A DNA stretch of 64,000 nucleotides from an uncultured Microbulbifer sp. GTDB lineage: Bacteria; Pseudomonadota; Gammaproteobacteria; Pseudomonadales; Cellvibrionaceae. The stretch is from contig NZ_CANNGQ010000002.1 of assembly GCF_947504145.1 (NCBI RefSeq), forward strand, positions 744,001-808,000, in the 5' to 3' direction. Under the pieces are notes generated by a model. It saw only the letters and a list, made by a program, of their open reading frames with translations, was not told the DNA's origin and searched no databases. Each line of letters opens with the position of its first letter. Within the stretch, counting starts at the first letter, position 1. Shown here piece after piece: positions 10,346-48,296 of this stretch. The position numbers and the translations under genes were made by a program.

Positions 10346-13300
10346 TTACCACTTCTTGTGGAAACCGATACGCGCTTCAAACCCGTCGAACTCGCTGGAG
10401 TCGATATCGCGGGTGTAATCAATAATGCCGAACAGGCTGGTGGTGCCGCTGAAGTCTGCGGTGAGGCCAACGCCCGTTTCCAGTACTGCCTGACCGCGGT
10501 CCACCAGAATGGACGTGGTGTTGAATAGCACGGCGTCGGAGCCGTGATCCTCGTACCAGATATTTGCCTTGAAGTAGGGGCGCCAGCGGCGGTTGCCGCG
10601 CACAATATCCGCAACAATGCGTCCGCCTATTCGCGCGGTGAGCGCATCGACATCGTCAAAGTGGATGTCTGAAAATGCATCGAGGGTATTCCGGGTGCGC
10701 TGGTGCAGCCACACCAATTGCGCCTGGGGTTCGAGGGTCCATACCCCGTCGAGGGGAATCGGCACGCCCGCTTCCATGGACCCGAGCCACTGGTCGCCAT
10801 CAATATCCGCGCGGATCCCTCGGTGTGAACGGCTATCGCCATCAAAGTTTGCATACATCAGCACACCATCGAAGTAAGCGCCACCCGCCCAGTGGTGGGT
10901 CCAGTAACCGCCCAGGTTGTACTGATCCAGTTCTACCTTGCCGGTATTCAGGTTCTCCTCGGCCAGGGCAAAGCCACTGACATCCCCGCTGGCGCCACTG
11001 ACGCCAAACATAATGCCGAAAATATCCCGTTGCCCGTCTATTGGTCCGCGGCCATACAGCGGCGCACCCAGTTGTACGCCCCACAGGTCGCCGTCAAATT
11101 CCGGCCGCACCGAGCCGCCTTGGGATTGTTGCAGGTGATTGCCAAAGGCGCGCATCCACAGGCCGCCGAGACCGTCGTTGCGCTTGGACCAGGCCTGCTC
11201 ACCCTCGCGCTCGTGGAAGGTGCCAAGACTTTCGAGGCCCAGTGCGCGGCTTACCGAAGGCAGGGTCACGTGCACCGAGACTTCCGGCCGGTAGATGGGG
11301 ATGGGGTCGGTAAGGATCTCGGGACCACCGGAGCTGCTGGATGATGAGCTGCCACCGGAGCTGGAGCTACTGCCTGAACTTGAACTGCTGCCTGAGCTCG
11401 AGCCGCTACCTGAACTGGAACCGCTACTCGAGCCGGATGAGCTTCCCGAAGAGCTGGAACCGCTACTGCTGCCTGAAGAACTACCGGAAGAGCTACCGGA
11501 AGAACTGCCAGAGCTCGAGCTGCTGGAGCCGCTAGAACTTGAGGAGCTGGAGGATCCAGAGGAGCTGCTCGATGAACTGCCACTGCCAGAACTTGAGCTG
11601 CTGGAGCCCCCAGAGCTTGAAGAACTTGAAGAGCTGGAACTAGACGAGCTGGAACTCGATGAACTCGAGGATGAGCCGCCGCTAGAACTGGAGCTTGAAG
11701 AGCTACCGCTGGAAGAGCTGCTACTGCTACCAGAGCCACTGGAGCTGGAACTGCTCGATGCGCTGCCCCCCGAACTACTGGAAGAGCTACTTGAAGAGCT
11801 ACTGGAGGAACTGCTCGTAGAGCCGCCGGATGAGCCGCTCGAAGAGCTGCTTGAAGAACCACTGGACGAGCTACTCGACGAACTGCTGGAACTCGATGAA
11901 CTACTGGAACTCGATGAATTGCTACCACCAGAACTGGAAGAGCTACTGGAGCTACTGGTCTGTATCGGGTCGATATTTTTTGTATGCGAGCGCAGATACC
12001 AATTGTTTTCGGTACCGGCAGACACACCGCCGCGGAACAGGAAGTACTCATAGGGGCCGGCCGCGACAATACCGCCGAGGGTAAAAGCGCTGCTGCTACT
12101 GGTGCCGTTGCGCACCTCATTGACGAGAATGCCATCCCCGCGGGTCATCGCGCCCTGGCCGAAGGTGTTGTTAATAAACAGGGTGGTAGAGCCGGTCTCA
12201 TTGCCGTCGACAATCATCCGGTCCGATGGCGAGCCGTCACTGCCCAGTACGGTATCCAGGTACATACGCCCGTTCACACCCGCATAGTTGCCGGTCACGA
12301 GTAACTGGCCGCTGGCATTGTCGTTGCCAACCATATCGATACTGCCGGCATTGGTCAGGGTGACGCCGTTACCGGAAACCGCCGGAGCAATACGGCGCTG
12401 GCCATTGTTGGCCAGCAGGGTGGCATCGCGGTCGATCAACAGGGTTCCGGTACCGGTATTGCTGTCGCCAAGTATCAGGTCGCCGTTCATGGTCAGCTGA
12501 GAACTGCCGAGCAGACGAATCTGTTCCCACTGGGTCAGGCGGTTGGGCCTATCGCCGGTGGAGGATTCCCAGTCGAGACGGTCGGAACCCTGACCGCCAT
12601 TGATCGGATAGCCACCCAGGTTGCTGTCGTCCAGCCCAATCAGGCGAGCGAAGTCATCGCCCTCCTGCATATTCACATTGCGGACCTCCCCGCCGCTCCA
12701 GGAGAGTTCGTCGTTGCCCGCACCAGCCATGTAGGTCGGCAGTTCGCCGTCGAGAATGACCGCGCGATCGTCTCCGGCACCCTGTTGCACGCTATTGACG
12801 AATCCGCCTTCCATCAAAAAGGTATCGGTGCCCGCACCTTGGTCAAGCTGGGTATTGATTCGGCCACCGGCACGGTTGATGACTGTATCCGCGCCGGCAT
12901 CCAGGGAAAAAGGTGAGCCTTGAATAGTGCCGTAGTTATCCACCCGCGTATCCGCACTGCCAACGACTTCAACGCCGCTGTTAATGGTGCCACCACTTTG
13001 ATTGAGGATACTCAGGCTGCCGCCGCTGTTCACGCGGACTCCCTGATTGACGGTGCCGTCATTGGTAAACGTCACCATGCCGTTGTTCAGCAGATTCAGA
13101 GAGCTCAATATGCCCTGGTTGTCGATGGTCAGGGAGTCGATCATCTGTGCCTGTAGTGGCCCGTTAAAGCTCGTGCCCGCGAGGATGTCGATAGTGAGGT
13201 CGCTGAGTCCGCTGACAGAAAACCCGTTGCTGGTTCCGCTACAGGTGACAGTATCTCCAGAATTAGGCGGGGCAGGTTGGCAATCGGCACGAGTGTCTAG

Positions 13301-28509: not shown

Positions 28510-29034
28510 TCAGGAATGTGCAGCGCCGGCGCCTGCCAGTTGCTGCTTTAATTGTTTGAACCGCGCGACCTGTTCCGGGATCAGTTTGCGTTCTGCATCC
28601 CGGCCCAGAAATACTTTGAATACGCAGTTGCCGCTGGGGGCGAGAAAGACCATGGAGTGGCTTTCGGCACCGCGGTGGGGTTTGCTGACGAAGGCGATTT
28701 CTACGAGCCCTTCGACCAGCAAGTGGCCGTGGAAGGGATTTTTGTGGTGCATGAAGTTGTAGTAACCGTGGGCAATGCTGCCTTTGGGAAACTCGCCTTT
28801 AAATTCAAACACGGAGCCTTCGTTCTGGACGATGGCGGTCACTTTGCCCCAGCTGGGCAGTTCTTCGATCAGTTGCCATACGGCGTCGCTTCCGGCGAGT
28901 GAGGCCATGTCGCCCGGCAGGTTGGCAATAATCTCGCGCACACTGGTGTCGAGCTGTTTCGCCATCTGTTCCAGGGTGAAACCTGATTCACTGGCAAGTA
29001 GTTCCTGTACTTTCTCTTTCATCTTTTCTTGCAT
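28510..29034 (-). CDS. hutX: Cytosolic haem carrier HutX
   Basis: Carries haem and hands it to HutZ. From ATG 29034 (in-frame choices at 29046 and 29022) it has 174 residues. Family signs are SGFTLEQMAKQLDTSVREI near the N-terminus, the central WGKVTAIVQNEGSVFEFKG, GYYNFMHHKNPFHGHL with candidate haem-binding histidines, and AFVSKPHRGAESHSMVFL. Its order next to hutZ is the standard arrangement. The 291 bases separating it from the receptor gene hold the unusual inverted elements described at 29081-29292. Confidence 0.9.
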   Translation of the reverse strand: MQEKMKEKVQELLASESGFTLEQMAKQLDTSVREIIANLPGDMASLAGSDAVWQLIEELPSWGKVTAIVQNEGSVFEFKGEFPKGSIAHGYYNFMHHKNPFHGHLLVEGLVEIAFVSKPHRGAESHSMVFLAPSGNCVFKVFLGRDAERKLIPEQVARFKQLKQQLAGAGAAHS

Positions 29035-29080
29035 TAGCAATACCAAACGTTCTCTGTATCAATCCACCACTACAAAATTA

Positions 29081-29153
29081 GCCGAGTCAGTGTTGGCCAT
29101 TGCGAAAACGATTGCCGCTAGGTTGTTTGCGCAATGGCCACCACTGGCTCGGC
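29081..29153 (+). repeat. Family II palindromic element, copy 1 (73 bp)
   Basis: A hairpin of 24-base arms (29081-29104 with 29130-29153, two mismatches) around a 25-base loop. The loop holds a 24-base core (29106-29129, beginning AAACGATTGCCG) that recurs exactly, inverted, in copy 2. Core position and total length are identical in both copies; the arms are unrelated. Confidence 0.85.
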
Positions 29154-29159
29154 GGGCTA

Positions 29160-29213
29160 CGGAGCTAGAAAGACCGGCTCGGTGGACCGCGCTCTCCAAA
29201 GGTCTTAGCTCCG
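29160..29213 (+). repeat. Imperfect hairpin between the two family II copies
   Basis: CGGAGCTA-gaa-AGACC (29160-29175) pairs with GGTCTTAGCTCCG (29201-29213), leaving a three-base bulge. It fills most of the 66-base spacer between the family II copies. Confidence 0.65.
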
Positions 29214-29219
29214 CGAGTC

Positions 29220-29292
29220 GCGGCCTCCGGGGTACTTACCTGTCAAACAACCTAGCGGCAATCGTTTGCCAAGTAAGTACCCCGGAGGCCGC
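29220..29292 (-). repeat. Family II palindromic element, copy 2 (73 bp, inverted)
   Basis: Perfect 20-base arms (29220-29239 with 29273-29292) around a 33-base loop. The loop carries the same 24-base core on the minus strand (29244-29267). Read on minus, 25 bases precede the core and 24 follow it, exactly as in copy 1. Confidence 0.85.
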
Positions 29293-29325
29293 TCGTTTGT
29301 AGTGGGTTTCGATTCTGGTTTGTGA

Positions 29326-31404
29326 TCAGAAACGGTAGCTGGCAGACAGTTTAATGTTGCGGCCCGGCATATACAGTTCCTGGAAGGCGACCCGGTATTC
29401 TTCGTCGGTCAGGTTATCCAGGGCCAGGCCCAGCTTGATACCGTTCAGGCTGCCAGCGGCTGGCTCCCAGGTCATGTAGGCGTCGGCCAGGGTGTAGCTG
29501 GTGTAGTCGCGGGTTTCTTCTACCGGCAGCTGATCCTGGGCGGAGACTACGGAGGTGCGCAGGCCCGCTTTGAGGTCACGTTGCAGGAAGTAGTGGCCGA
29601 GATCCAGTACGAACTTGTCCGCGGGGATGCTGGTCAGGTAGCTGTCGTCGGTCAGGTCACGGCCTTCGGTCTGGCCGTAGCTGGTGCCGATTTCGAGATC
29701 GTTGATCCGGTAGTTGGCGCTCAGTTCAAAGCCTTTCAGTTCCGCCTCGTCCACGTTCAGGTAGGTGGTGTTCATGGGGAAGCCGAACATTGGGTGCGGG
29801 TTGGTGACTACCTGCTCGATAAAGTTATCCACTTTATTGCGGAATATAGCCGCGCTGGCGGTGAGCTGGTCGCTGCTATTGGCGAGGCCGCTGAAGGCAA
29901 AGTCCGCGCGCAGCTCGGTGTTTTGTGCTTCTTCTGCTTCCAGGTCCGGGTTGGGAATGAAGGTGTTGCAGAAGGGGCCGAAGTAGCAGAAGTGGGTGCC
30001 TTCGGTGTACATCTCTTCCACGCCTGGTGCGCGGAAGGCTTTGGCGTAGCTGGCGCTGAGATTCAGCCATTCGGTGGCTTTGACGGCGGCGGCGATGGAG
30101 GGGGAGACGGCGGTGTCTTCGCGGGTGGATTCGCTCAGCTGCTGGCTTTCGGCTTCGAAGCGGTCGTAGCGTACCCCCGGGGTCACGGTGAATACATCGC
30201 CGAAGGTGAACGCGGCCTGGGTGTAAATGCCCAGCACGTCGGTGTCGGCGTTCAGGTTTTGCGGGCGGTTGTCGCCGTCGCGCACGGTGGTGACGTCGTC
30301 CTGATACCAGTCGAGACCGTAGACCCACTGGGCACTGAGGCCTTCTGTTGCATTGGTTAGGGCGAGGCCGGTGGTGGTGACTTCGGTGTTGTCGTTCTGA
30401 CCGGCCTCACCCTGGGTGGGGCGGAATTCTTCGAACTGTGTGTCGTTGCGGTAAAGGGTGACTTTTGTTGTGTGGCTGGCGGCGCCGTCGGTGTGCGCGC
30501 TTTTTCCTGCCTGGATCAGATAGCCGGCGGTGACATTCTGATCGGTGATGTCGCGCTCAACCAGCGGTGAGCTGGTGCCCACATTGGCATTCGGGTTGGA
30601 CGGAACGGCTTCTTCGCGATTGTTGTGGCGGAAGGACAGGTCGATGCGCTGGTTGTCGCTGATTTTGAAACCGCCGCGGGCGAGCAGGGCGGTATTTTCG
30701 CTGGCGCTGTTTTCCAGTTCCTCGCCACCACCGATTTCCACGTTGTCGTGCTCGGAGAAGGAGCCGTTCACCAGGTAATCGAAATCGCCGGCCAGGCCGT
30801 AGATGGCGGCGGTGGTTTCGGTGGAGTCACCGTTGCTGCCCAGTTCCTGTTTCAGGTAGCCGCCGAGGTTGTTGTTGAGCGTATTGCCGCTTTTCAGCAG
30901 GTCCGCAGCGCTCTTGGTGGACATGGCCACCACGCCGCCGATGGCGCCGGAGCCCCACAGACTGGAGGCGGGGCCTTTTTTTACTTCCACCTGTTTCAGC
31001 AGTTCCGGGTCCAGCTGGTAGGTGCCGCGGTGGCCGGAGTTGAAGTTCTGGCGGGCGCCGTCGATGGTTTGCAGTACACGCACGCCCTGGAGGCCGCGAA
31101 TATTTGGAGCCTGGTTGGAGTAGCGGGGGCCGCCGGTGACTTCGATATTGGGTTCGTATTTCAGTGCCTGGGCGATGGACTCCGGCTGTTGCTCTTCCAG
31201 CTGTACGCGCTCGACCACGGCGATGCTTGCGTCTTTTTCCTTGGCGGCCGGGTTGCGGTCTGCGGCGACGATTACTTCACCGAACTGGATCACTGGCTGG
31301 TCGCCAGTCTCGGTTTCGGTCGCCTGTGCCATGGCGCTGTTTGCACACAGCGCCAGTACCGCAGCGGCGAGAGGATGAAGTTTCAGAGTCTTGAACTGGC
31401 CCAT
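29326..31404 (-). CDS. TonB-dependent haem/haemoglobin receptor
   Basis: A 692-residue outer-membrane receptor importing haem. I start at ATG 31404, which has a GGGGG ribosome site and opens the signal peptide MGQFKTLKLHPLAAAVLALC...AMAQA. A TonB-box-like FGEVIVAADR, a plug domain (NIEVTGGPRYSNQAPNIRGLQG, TIDGARQNFNSGHRG, EVKKGPASSLWGSGAIGGVV) and a barrel ending in aromatic Phe (ASYRF) follow. The VLQTIDGARQ and GHRG features resemble the haemoglobin/transferrin/lactoferrin receptor group. Neighbouring hutX and hutZ on the same strand and hmuTUV opposite fix haem as substrate. A Fur box lies about 125 bases upstream. Confidence 0.92.
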   Translation of the reverse strand: MGQFKTLKLHPLAAAVLALCANSAMAQATETETGDQPVIQFGEVIVAADRNPAAKEKDASIAVVERVQLEEQQPESIAQALKYEPNIEVTGGPRYSNQAPNIRGLQGVRVLQTIDGARQNFNSGHRGTYQLDPELLKQVEVKKGPASSLWGSGAIGGVVAMSTKSAADLLKSGNTLNNNLGGYLKQELGSNGDSTETTAAIYGLAGDFDYLVNGSFSEHDNVEIGGGEELENSASENTALLARGGFKISDNQRIDLSFRHNNREEAVPSNPNANVGTSSPLVERDITDQNVTAGYLIQAGKSAHTDGAASHTTKVTLYRNDTQFEEFRPTQGEAGQNDNTEVTTTGLALTNATEGLSAQWVYGLDWYQDDVTTVRDGDNRPQNLNADTDVLGIYTQAAFTFGDVFTVTPGVRYDRFEAESQQLSESTREDTAVSPSIAAAVKATEWLNLSASYAKAFRAPGVEEMYTEGTHFCYFGPFCNTFIPNPDLEAEEAQNTELRADFAFSGLANSSDQLTASAAIFRNKVDNFIEQVVTNPHPMFGFPMNTTYLNVDEAELKGFELSANYRINDLEIGTSYGQTEGRDLTDDSYLTSIPADKFVLDLGHYFLQRDLKAGLRTSVVSAQDQLPVEETRDYTSYTLADAYMTWEPAAGSLNGIKLGLALDNLTDEEYRVAFQELYMPGRNIKLSASYRF

Positions 31405-31529
31405 AACGGTGCCCCCTTTTCGTGTTCCCAAGATAGGTTCCCAATTGAATGTCCGTATTGCCGACCGTTATTTCGAGGCCGGTCGGTACGGTTGCGCCGA
31501 ATCATAGGTCCAGTAAATCATATTGTAAA

Positions 31530-34532: not shown

Positions 34533-34670
34533 GCGAAGGCGTCGATGCCGGGTGCAAACTTGTGAGACCTTCAAAAACAGGATGTTTTTGCAGAGCCCCC
34601 AGGGATGGGTTCATGGCGTGTCTCACAAGTTTGCACCCGGTAGCGGTGCCGCCACAAAAGTACCCGAAGC
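34533..34670 (+). repeat. Family I palindromic element, copy A (138 bp)
   Basis: It lies between hmuT and hmuU in the same orientation as the operon. Perfect 21-base arms (34548-34568 with 34620-34640) enclose a loop with a mini-hairpin (CAAAAAC-aggat-GTTTTTG) and the conserved core CCCAGGGATGGGTTCA at 34598-34613. The conserved left end is GCGAAGGCG, and the conserved right end has CCGCCAC then ACCCGAAGC. Confidence 0.88.
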
Positions 34671-46792: not shown

Positions 46793-46930
46793 CGCGGGTA
46801 ACTTTTGTGGCGGCACTGCCATCGGGTGACCATTCGCAGGACACGCCGTGAACCCATCCCTGGGGGCTCTTCGAAAAAGTCCCTTTTTTCGAAGGTCCTG
46901 CAAATGGTCACCCGATGTCAGCGCCTTCGC
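46793..46930 (-). repeat. Family I palindromic element, copy B (138 bp, inverted)
   Basis: Between ribE and ribBA, opposite to the operon direction. The 23-base arms (46820-46842 with 46895-46917) have one mismatch. The conserved core reads CCCAGGGATGGGTTCA on minus at 46849-46864, and the loop has a mini-hairpin CTTCGAAAAA...TTTTTCGAAG. The ends match copy A (GCGAAGGCG at one side; GTGCCGCCACAAAAGT and ACCCG at the other). Confidence 0.88.
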
Positions 46931-47002
46931 ATCAAGACAAGTGGCCACGAATTGATTTTGAAAGGTGAGAGCGTTGACCTCATCGAGCAAACTAGAGGTT
47001 TT

Positions 47003-48159: not shown

Positions 48160-48296
48160 GAAGGTGGAGTGCCGGGTATCAGTTTTCAGGAGCGTCGCAA
48201 ACAGGATGTTTGCGCCGCAGCGCCCAGGGATGGGTTCACCGCGGTCCTGAAAACTGATACCCGGTGCTCCACCGCCACTGCACCAGGACCCGAAGC
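48160..48296 (+). repeat. Family I palindromic element, copy C (137 bp)
   Basis: Between ribBA and ribH, in operon direction. The 29-base arms (48163-48191 with 48245-48273) have two mismatches. The loop contains CGCAAAC-aggat-GTTTGCG and the core CCCAGGGATGGGTTCA at 48223-48238. The ends match the family (GAAGGTG left; CCGCCAC then ACCCGAAGC right). Confidence 0.88.

What the first reader, a model, noticed from the sequence alone, without database searches (positions are those of the whole stretch)
29081..29292. Family II: a pair of exactly 73-bp palindromes with identical core and unrelated stems, in inverted orientation
Copies 29081-29153 (plus) and 29220-29292 (minus) have the same 24-base core starting at base 26 of 73, but arms of different sequence (24 bases with two mismatches; 20 perfect). 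The geometry is identical to the base. Between them is a third hairpin. It uses the same conserved-loop, variable-stem principle as family I with a different core, so the two may be one mechanism. The inverted cores make the two loops fully complementary, permitting loop-loop pairing in the haem receptor-hutX mRNA.
Basis: seen in the sequence. Interest (0 to 1): 0.8.

Follow-up and report, generated by a model that had tools for sequence, protein, structure and literature searches.

The report
Interspersed hairpin repeats of Microbulbifer
The two look-alike hairpins next to a haem-uptake gene are two copies of a short DNA repeat scattered through marine Microbulbifer genomes, whose tip is conserved while its stem drifts but stays paired; it resembles known bacterial palindromic repeats but did not pass the tests for their named families.

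Summary
In detail: 29081-29153 (+) and 29220-29292 (-) are 73-bp palindromes sharing an identical 24-nt core at base 26. It is not a local duplication. The core recurs in 9 of 48 genus genomes (Microbulbifer, own included), 23 places, in self-complementary arms. A covariance model finds the family in 34 of 48 genus genomes and, weakly, in 1 of 96 others of the family; up to 65 matches per genome, both strands counted. In 52 aligned copies 22 of 25 outer pairs show two-sided changes. Copies are intergenic, rarely between divergent genes (4 of 145), in either direction relative to genes (46 sense, 60 antisense). Wobble mispairs favour the core strand (G.T 179, A.C 63), also where it is antisense to the genes. 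Best reading: a REP/BIME-like non-autonomous palindromic repeat, here an inverted dimer, with a strand-specific fold; partner protein unknown. REP tags and a Y1-transposase link were tested and not met. Loop-loop pairing in the haem mRNA is not supported: in 4 of 8 receptor-hutX pairs the cores differ.

The parts
29081..29153 (+). Family II hairpin A (73 bp)
   Evidence: model R1 hit 29070-29165 (+), 84.0 bits, E 1.1e-18 (this copy is in the model's training set)
29106..29129 (+). 24-nt conserved core (cap) of hairpin A
   Evidence: core columns mostly invariant in the 23 copies of A1
29220..29292 (-). Family II hairpin B (73 bp)
   Evidence: model R1 hit 29209-29302 (-), 86.7 bits, E 2.3e-19 (also in the training set)
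29244..29267 (-). 24-nt conserved core (cap) of hairpin B, identical to that of A
29067..29076 (+). 5' tail of unit A (CCACTACAAA); with 29296-29305 it forms the outer 10-bp inverted repeat
29296..29305 (-). 5' tail of unit B (the same 10 bases on the - strand)
29160..29213 (.). Third hairpin: 3' tails of the two units pair (CGGAGCTA / TAGCTCCG); this spacer differs strongly between species
   Evidence: species comparison
28510..29031 (-). hutX, downstream gene (haem carrier HutX)
   Evidence: TIGR04108, 181.7 bits, cut-off 110
29326..31431 (-). TonB-dependent haem/haemoglobin receptor, upstream gene
   Evidence: TIGR01785, 534.5 bits, cut-off 316.85
46801..46935 (-). Family I element that the family II model R2 matches
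   Evidence: 30 bits, E 2.5e-4

Best explanation
The two hairpins are an inverted dimer of a small, non-autonomous, interspersed palindromic repeat that was found almost only in Microbulbifer: a REP/BIME-like element without the known REP tags. Shown: one family, many sites, both directions relative to genes, few copies between divergent genes, tandem arrays and inverted pairs, presence or absence at orthologous sites, a cap conserved within two main types, two stem pairs that hardly vary, and other stem pairs that vary but keep pairing, with wobble favoured on the core-bearing strand. Inferred: the active form is that strand folded as a single strand (ssDNA, or an RNA of its own), read by an unidentified protein that contacts the asymmetric cap (closing pairs CAAAC/GTTTG, a 5' bulge and a small GCC/GG hairpin) and the two nearly fixed G-C pairs about one helix turn below; the rest of the stem only has to pair, so it drifts. 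At its present site the dimer is at most a mild inter-cistronic hairpin of the receptor-hutX transcript, not a dedicated haem switch.
For: Core within 3 mismatches in 9 of 48 genus genomes (own included), 23 places, self-complementary flanks. R2 matches in 34 of 48 genus genomes, 1 weak genome among the other 96 of the family, and no other genus of the 118 sampled in the order. Matches per genome, both strands counted: own 12, G008 65, G037 56, G036 45, G020 38, G015 35. Pairing in A3 (52 copies): 93.2% of outer-helix cells paired, 22 of 25 pairs with two-sided changes; whole structure 370 double-change cells against 98.7 (sd 10.0) shuffled and 71-93 when slid. Context: 106 codirectional, 29 convergent, 4 divergent, 2 unresolved, 4 inside a called ORF, of 145; 46 sense, 60 antisense; median 56 nt from the nearest stop codon, n = 135. 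G.T 179 to A.C 63 in 146 unique copies; 62 to 26 in 55 representatives; 22 to 4 in the 23 copies found by core sequence alone, 85 to 18 in antisense and 43 to 11 in sense copies. Tandem arrays in G037 and G036. A site filled in G015 (231 bp) has 37 bp in G018 between flanks 84-88% identical; five other G015 places match that element region at 85-93%. TnpA-REP proteins read folded ssDNA in a strand-specific way through loops and stem irregularities (PMC8266576, passages seen).
Against: No partner protein found: 0 family II hits at 30 loci with Y1 transposase matches, 22 of them in genomes that carry the family; no correlation with Y1 counts (Spearman 0.06, p 0.68); of 35 clusters of neighbouring proteins all but one recur with the same gene cluster on the other side, i.e. 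as orthologous gaps. GTAG and CGTC tags are not clearly enriched. The replication-strand test is mixed: 57 of 81 unpaired copies in four high-copy genomes have the core strand on the negative-GC-skew strand, but only 2 of 12 in eight low-copy genomes (together 59 to 34, p 0.012), and G036 alone is 11 to 10. Persistence at orthologous sites across many species could mean a local function that this reading underrates. G.U is tolerated better in RNA than G.T in DNA (recalled), so an RNA form is not excluded. Counts include orthologous and array copies, which are not independent. Copies found through the covariance models carry some bias toward G.U.
Confidence: 0.65

Rival explanations
1. Cis-acting RNA switch of the haem operon: the two complementary loops kiss in the receptor-hutX mRNA and control the downstream gene.
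For: Both hairpins lie in the gap of a codirectional receptor-hutX pair (names); the two cores are exact reverse complements here; 8 of 16 hutX loci carry a pair.
Against: Of 16 hutX loci 5 show no element, one carries a family I element instead, one a short remnant-like hairpin and one a single copy; in 4 of 8 pairs the cores differ. The same element occurs alone at unrelated genes. The wobble bias follows the core strand, not the mRNA strand.
Confidence: 0.05
2. Trans-acting structured RNA, or a regulon of RNA sites: the core strand is transcribed from the element's own promoter, or is bound as RNA by a shared regulator.
For: Strong two-sided covariation and tolerance of G.U on the core strand; conservation at orthologous loci such as spoT-ridA and hom-thrC.
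Against: No clear direction preference relative to genes (46 to 60); no sigma-70-type promoter match in 28900-29500; no Rfam family at gathering score in the window, and in four relative loci only matches far below gathering score, to miRNA families and one IRES; conservation mostly ends just outside the hairpin; variable, arrayed copy numbers.
Confidence: 0.17
3. Not a family under selection: quasi-palindrome correction by template switching during replication keeps any old palindrome paired, so covariation says nothing about function.
For: Two-sided changes between orthologues at spoT-ridA (by eye); long palindromes are known substrates of template switching (recalled).
Against: It predicts no G.T over A.C asymmetry (inference), yet 179 to 63 is seen; it does not explain the conserved cap or the two nearly fixed G-C pairs (50 and 49 of 52).
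Confidence: 0.08
4. Intrinsic or bidirectional transcription terminators whose stems are selected for strength.
For: Copies lie just after stop codons (median 56 nt) and often between convergent genes (29 of 145); the gap folds very stably. On the mRNA strand hairpin A is followed by TAATTTTG, four T (by eye).
Against: T-runs (5 of 8 within 16 nt of the stem) follow 0 of 145 copies on the core strand (0.5 expected) and 24 of 145 on the other (23.3 expected), i.e. no excess. The standard scan found one terminator-like site, 29289-29305 on +, at chance level (0.5 expected), but it allows loops of 3-8 only and could not have reported these hairpins. Terminators do not need a conserved cap.
Confidence: 0.05

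Closest known systems
REP / BIME repetitive extragenic palindromes (GTAG and CGTC families; Di Nocera et al. 2013, PMC3733652, abstract and passages seen)
   Same: Intergenic, multi-copy, palindromic, mainly between codirectional or convergent genes and downstream of coding regions, often as oppositely oriented dimers.
   Different: Stem about 23-25 bp against 6-13 (GTAG) or 8-9 (CGTC); no clear GTAG or CGTC tag; a conserved 24-25-nt asymmetric cap; tens of copies rather than the more than 100 per genome said to be usual for REPs (PMC2817692, start of abstract in the listing).
REPINs / RAYT (TnpA-REP) systems (PMC3116915, start of abstract in search listings; PMC8266576, passages seen)
   Same: Inverted dimers; strand-specific hairpin features; non-autonomous.
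   Different: No association with Y1 transposase genes in location or copy number; no GTAG.
Integron attC sites (recalled)
   Same: Folded single strand, variable stem sequence, unpaired bases that mark one strand.
   Different: attC keeps its conserved boxes at the base and varies at the tip; here the tip is conserved. No integrase was searched for.
Family I hairpins of the same window
   Same: Similar lower stem by eye and variable middle stem; two family I elements are matched by the family II model.
   Different: Another, larger apical part with two inner hairpins; 50 places in this genome within 3 mismatches of its loop pattern; no G.T over A.C asymmetry in 30 of them; two of three window copies not matched by R2.

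Membership tests
GTAG / CGTC REP | Terminal unpaired GTAG or CGTC tag at one end of the stem (in over 90% of members of most GTAG families, PMC3733652) | tested here: not met
   145 copies: GTAG 3, 12, 2, 5 in the four placements against 6.7, 7.1, 3.9, 5.6 in shuffled flanks; CGTC 0, 2, 7, 15 against 5.8, 13.3, 10.5, 15.5. The best placement, reverse GTAG in the 3' flank, is in 12 of 145.
REP (general) | Multi-copy intergenic palindrome, few between divergent genes, often in inverted dimers | tested here: met
RAYT-mobilised REP / REPIN | Copies flank or accompany a Y1 (RAYT) transposase gene | tested here: not met
   0 of 30 loci with Y1 matches carry a family II hit at E up to 1; 22 of the 30 are in genomes with the family. 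No copy-number correlation. G004, G012 and G013 have family II hits but no Y1 match. A lost partner is not excluded.
MITE of a classical IS | Fixed terminal inverted repeats and target-site duplication | tested here: inconclusive
   One empty site seen, but the gap is too diverged to place the ends
Intrinsic terminator | G+C-rich hairpin followed by a T-run | tested here: not met
   No excess of T-runs after 145 copies on either strand; the scan cannot see loops this long
Known Rfam RNA family | Reaches a curated gathering score | tested here: not met
   Window: 0 matches; four relative loci: only matches far below gathering score
Integron attC | Conserved basal R and L boxes recombined by an integron integrase | not tested
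   No integrase or box search was made; the most conserved part here is apical
Phage- or plasmid-borne repeat | Present in phage or plasmid records | tested here: not met
   No match of the 291-base region in plasmids or phages; one core pattern in 0 viral contigs

The most novel reading that the evidence does not exclude
A categorically distinct class of small mobile hairpin, not REP and not RAYT-driven, in which an unknown protein reads a conserved asymmetric cap and two fixed stem pairs of one folded strand (ssDNA at the replication fork, or an RNA intermediate) and copies it to new intergenic sites. Families I and II would be two cap types on one shared lower stem.
Probability: 0.18. Interest if true: 0.8.

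Novelty: new variant of a known kind. Interest (0 to 1): 0.48.

Why it matters
It adds to bacterial palindromic repeats a family in which constraint can be read position by position: cap and two pairs conserved, stem free but paired, and wobble tolerated mainly on one strand. The strand asymmetry separates selection on host mRNA from selection on the element's own strand, a test that could be applied to other REP-like repeats. If a partner protein exists, it may be a REP-type system without Y1 transposases.

Tried and rejected
Blastn of the 291-base region in plasmids and phages: nothing. One core pattern in viral contigs: nothing. Rfam: nothing at gathering score in the window; in four relative loci only matches far below it. 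Y1 transposase link: not supported. A recurrent neighbouring gene as transposase: none; 34 of 35 protein clusters recur with the same cluster on the other side. REP tags: not clearly enriched. Terminator: no excess of T-runs; the scan was not informative for long loops. Replication-strand bias: looked strong in G037 and in one contig each of G008 and G020, then was diluted by the other contigs, G036 and the low-copy genomes; kept as a lead only. The inner three-pair helix that I wrote into one search was out of register; its row (32.7% paired) is not used, though it is part of the whole-structure counts.

Literature: six searches. Judged by titles and abstract beginnings, no listed paper describes this family; only open-licence papers are held. 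A Microbulbifer genome paper was checked: its 'palindromic' is CRISPR only (PMC12388028, passages). PMC12306157: outline and abstract seen, not used.

Rows dropped. In some searches: opposite-strand duplicate hits; tandem arrays in G037 and G036 collapsed to one by hand; hits within 400 bp of another in the unpaired counts; two G008:C8 hits near the skew switch; the hits on contigs whose skew was not sampled (G008 C4, C5, C6, C14; G020 C2, C4, C5); all of G015 (110 contigs) and the own genome; matches below the cut of the listing. The skew of G008:C9 rests on one 20-kb stretch. Searches used 145 of 237 placed copies (duplicate contexts and copies near locus ends left out). One search used 30 of the 50 family I places.

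Full report
What is there. The gap between a TonB-dependent haem receptor gene (29326-31431, -) and hutX (28510-29031, -) (names) holds two 73-bp palindromes, 29081-29153 (+) and 29220-29292 (-), with an identical 24-nt core from base 26 of each. The cores are found 2 times in the window against 0.00 expected. Each unit also has a 5' tail CCACTACAAA, and the 3' tails of the two units pair with each other; this gives the outer 10-bp inverted repeat and the third hairpin. I read the arrangement as an inverted dimer of one unit.

Other copies. In the own genome the core itself occurs only here, but the family models find further members at C2:41119 (the spoT-ridA gap, L083), C5:86192 and an array of three at C2:523794-524078 (gene names). 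Among 48 genomes of the genus, own included, 9 have the core within 3 mismatches, 23 places; all have self-complementary flanks, imperfect in some, while the stems differ. With model R2 (52 copies) 34 of 48 genus genomes match at E 1e-5 and one genome of another genus matches weakly (2.3e-7) among the other 96 of the family; in 293 genomes of the order (118 genera) only Microbulbifer matches. These wide searches use strict filters and capped candidates, so absences and counts there are lower bounds. High-copy genomes have head-to-tail arrays (G037, spacing about 170 and 123; G036 at 831510-832413).

Anatomy. In A3 (52 copies) 93.2% of the outer-helix cells pair and 22 of 25 pairs have two-sided changes; for the whole structure 370 double-change cells against 98.7 (sd 10.0) in shuffles and 71-93 in slid controls. 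Two G-C pairs are nearly fixed (50 and 49 of 52). The core reads CAAAC, GATT, GCC, a 4-5-nt loop, GG, then TT or CT and GTTTG: closing pairs, a 5' bulge and a small apical hairpin. A second core type reads AAATATTTACCGATCAGGTTTTTT, so over the whole family only part of the core is invariant. Among copies reduced to about one per orthologous site (49 of the first type, 20 of the second), conservation is mostly confined to the hairpin and a few flanking bases, and the stem itself has a consensus. The stems of the two window copies are therefore diverged, not unrelated.

Which strand. Stem mispairs on the core strand are G.T 179 to A.C 63 in 146 unique copies and 62 to 26 in 55 representatives; 22 to 4 in the 23 copies found by core sequence alone; 51 in 16 columns to 16 in 7 columns in A3. 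In copies antisense to their genes it is 85 to 18, in sense copies 43 to 11; after clustering 49 to 10 and 20 to 6; convergent sites 12 to 7, divergent 3 to 3. If host mRNA were the constrained form, antisense copies should show the reverse. So the constrained form is the core strand itself, as ssDNA or as an RNA of its own. Copies found through the covariance model carry some bias toward G.U; the 23-copy set does not.

Context. Of 145 nonredundant contexts 106 are codirectional, 29 convergent, 4 divergent, 2 unresolved and 4 fell inside a called ORF; 46 sense, 60 antisense (a simple codon-usage gene caller of mine). The median distance to the nearest stop codon is 56 nt, n = 135. Neighbouring proteins form 35 clusters; all but one (L130/L160) recur with the same cluster on the other side of the element, i.e. 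as orthologous gaps: spoT-ridA (15 loci), receptor-hutX (11), hom-thrC (7) and others (names of these three pairs). T-runs after the stem are at shuffle level on both strands. Array and orthologous copies are included, so counts are not independent.

Gain and loss. Of 16 hutX loci (found in 48 genomes at E 1e-20) 8 have a pair, 1 a single copy, 1 a short remnant-like hairpin, 1 a family I element, 5 nothing. In 4 of the 8 pairs the two cores are not identical. In G015 one gene gap holds 231 bp including a copy close to others of that genome where G018, with flanks 84-88% identical, has 37 bp; five other G015 places match the same element region at 85-93%. The exact ends could not be placed.

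Replication. GC skew and dnaA positions suggested that the core strand lies on the negative-skew strand in expanded genomes: G037 17 to 4, G008:C8 14 to 1, G020:C1 7 to 0, but G036 11 to 10 (unpaired copies). With the other sampled contigs (G008:C9 4 to 3, G020:C9 2 to 3, G020:C3 2 to 3, by hand) it is 57 to 24. Twelve unpaired copies in eight low-copy genomes run 2 to 10 the other way, several of them orthologous. All together it is 59 to 34, p 0.012. I treat this as a lead, not a result.

Partner. Y1 transposase matches are in 45 of 48 genomes, but none of 30 such loci, 22 of them in genomes with the family, carries a family II copy; copy numbers do not correlate (Spearman 0.06, p 0.68); three genomes with copies have no Y1 match. 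GTAG and CGTC tags are not clearly enriched.

Family I. Fifty places in the own genome. Thirty were read: stems vary, the apical part has two inner hairpins with GGA loops, 15 are sense and 13 antisense, G.T 30 to A.C 25. Model R2 hits the copy at 46801-46935 and the family I element in G007's receptor-hutX gap, but not the other two window copies; R1 hits none in the window. The lower stems look alike (by eye). Kinship is likely, a shared mechanism unproven.

Comparison with the literature. REPs are 20-40 bp, most with a GTAG or CGTC tag, lie mainly between codirectional or convergent genes and downstream of coding regions, and often form inverted dimers (PMC3733652, abstract and passages). 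TnpA-REP reads folded ssDNA in a strand-specific way through loops and irregularities (PMC8266576, passages). Family II works like a REP in distribution, dimer form and strand asymmetry but fails the tag and the RAYT tests, so I do not file it as a REP; I call it a new variant of the small interspersed palindromic repeats.

Verdict. The best reading is a REP/BIME-like element with a strand-specific fold and an unknown partner.

Noticed in passing
window 34538-34651, 46801-46935, 48163-48273; 50 places in the own genome: Family I: variable main stem with an apical part of two inner hairpins, one often with loop context ACAGGATGT and one CCC-AGGGAT-GGG; both GGA loops resemble CsrA/RsmA binding sites (recalled, not tested). 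Copies lie in both directions (15 sense, 13 antisense of 30).
   Followed up: partly
L222 (G007), receptor-hutX gap: The same gene gap that holds family II in other species holds a family I element here.
   Followed up: partly
L215 (G006), receptor-hutX gap: A short hairpin that by eye looks like the outer and middle stem of hairpin A without the core: a possible remnant of deletion; R2 does not match it.
   Followed up: no
L223 (G003), between the two hairpins: A short tandem repeat (units like AAGCCCGG) has expanded in the spacer of the dimer.
   Followed up: no
G037:C1:3009657-3010434 and 1792899-1793613; G036:C1:831510-832413: Head-to-tail arrays of five, six and seven hairpins, spacing about 170, 123 and 134 bases.
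   Followed up: partly
L156 and other G015 copies: Copies sit in mosaics with another inverted motif of the type GTGCGCAC...GCGCACCCTA (by eye), perhaps a separate repeat family.
   Followed up: no
window 11376-11950: Long stretch of short-period direct repeats (D2-D4, D10), not examined.
   Followed up: no
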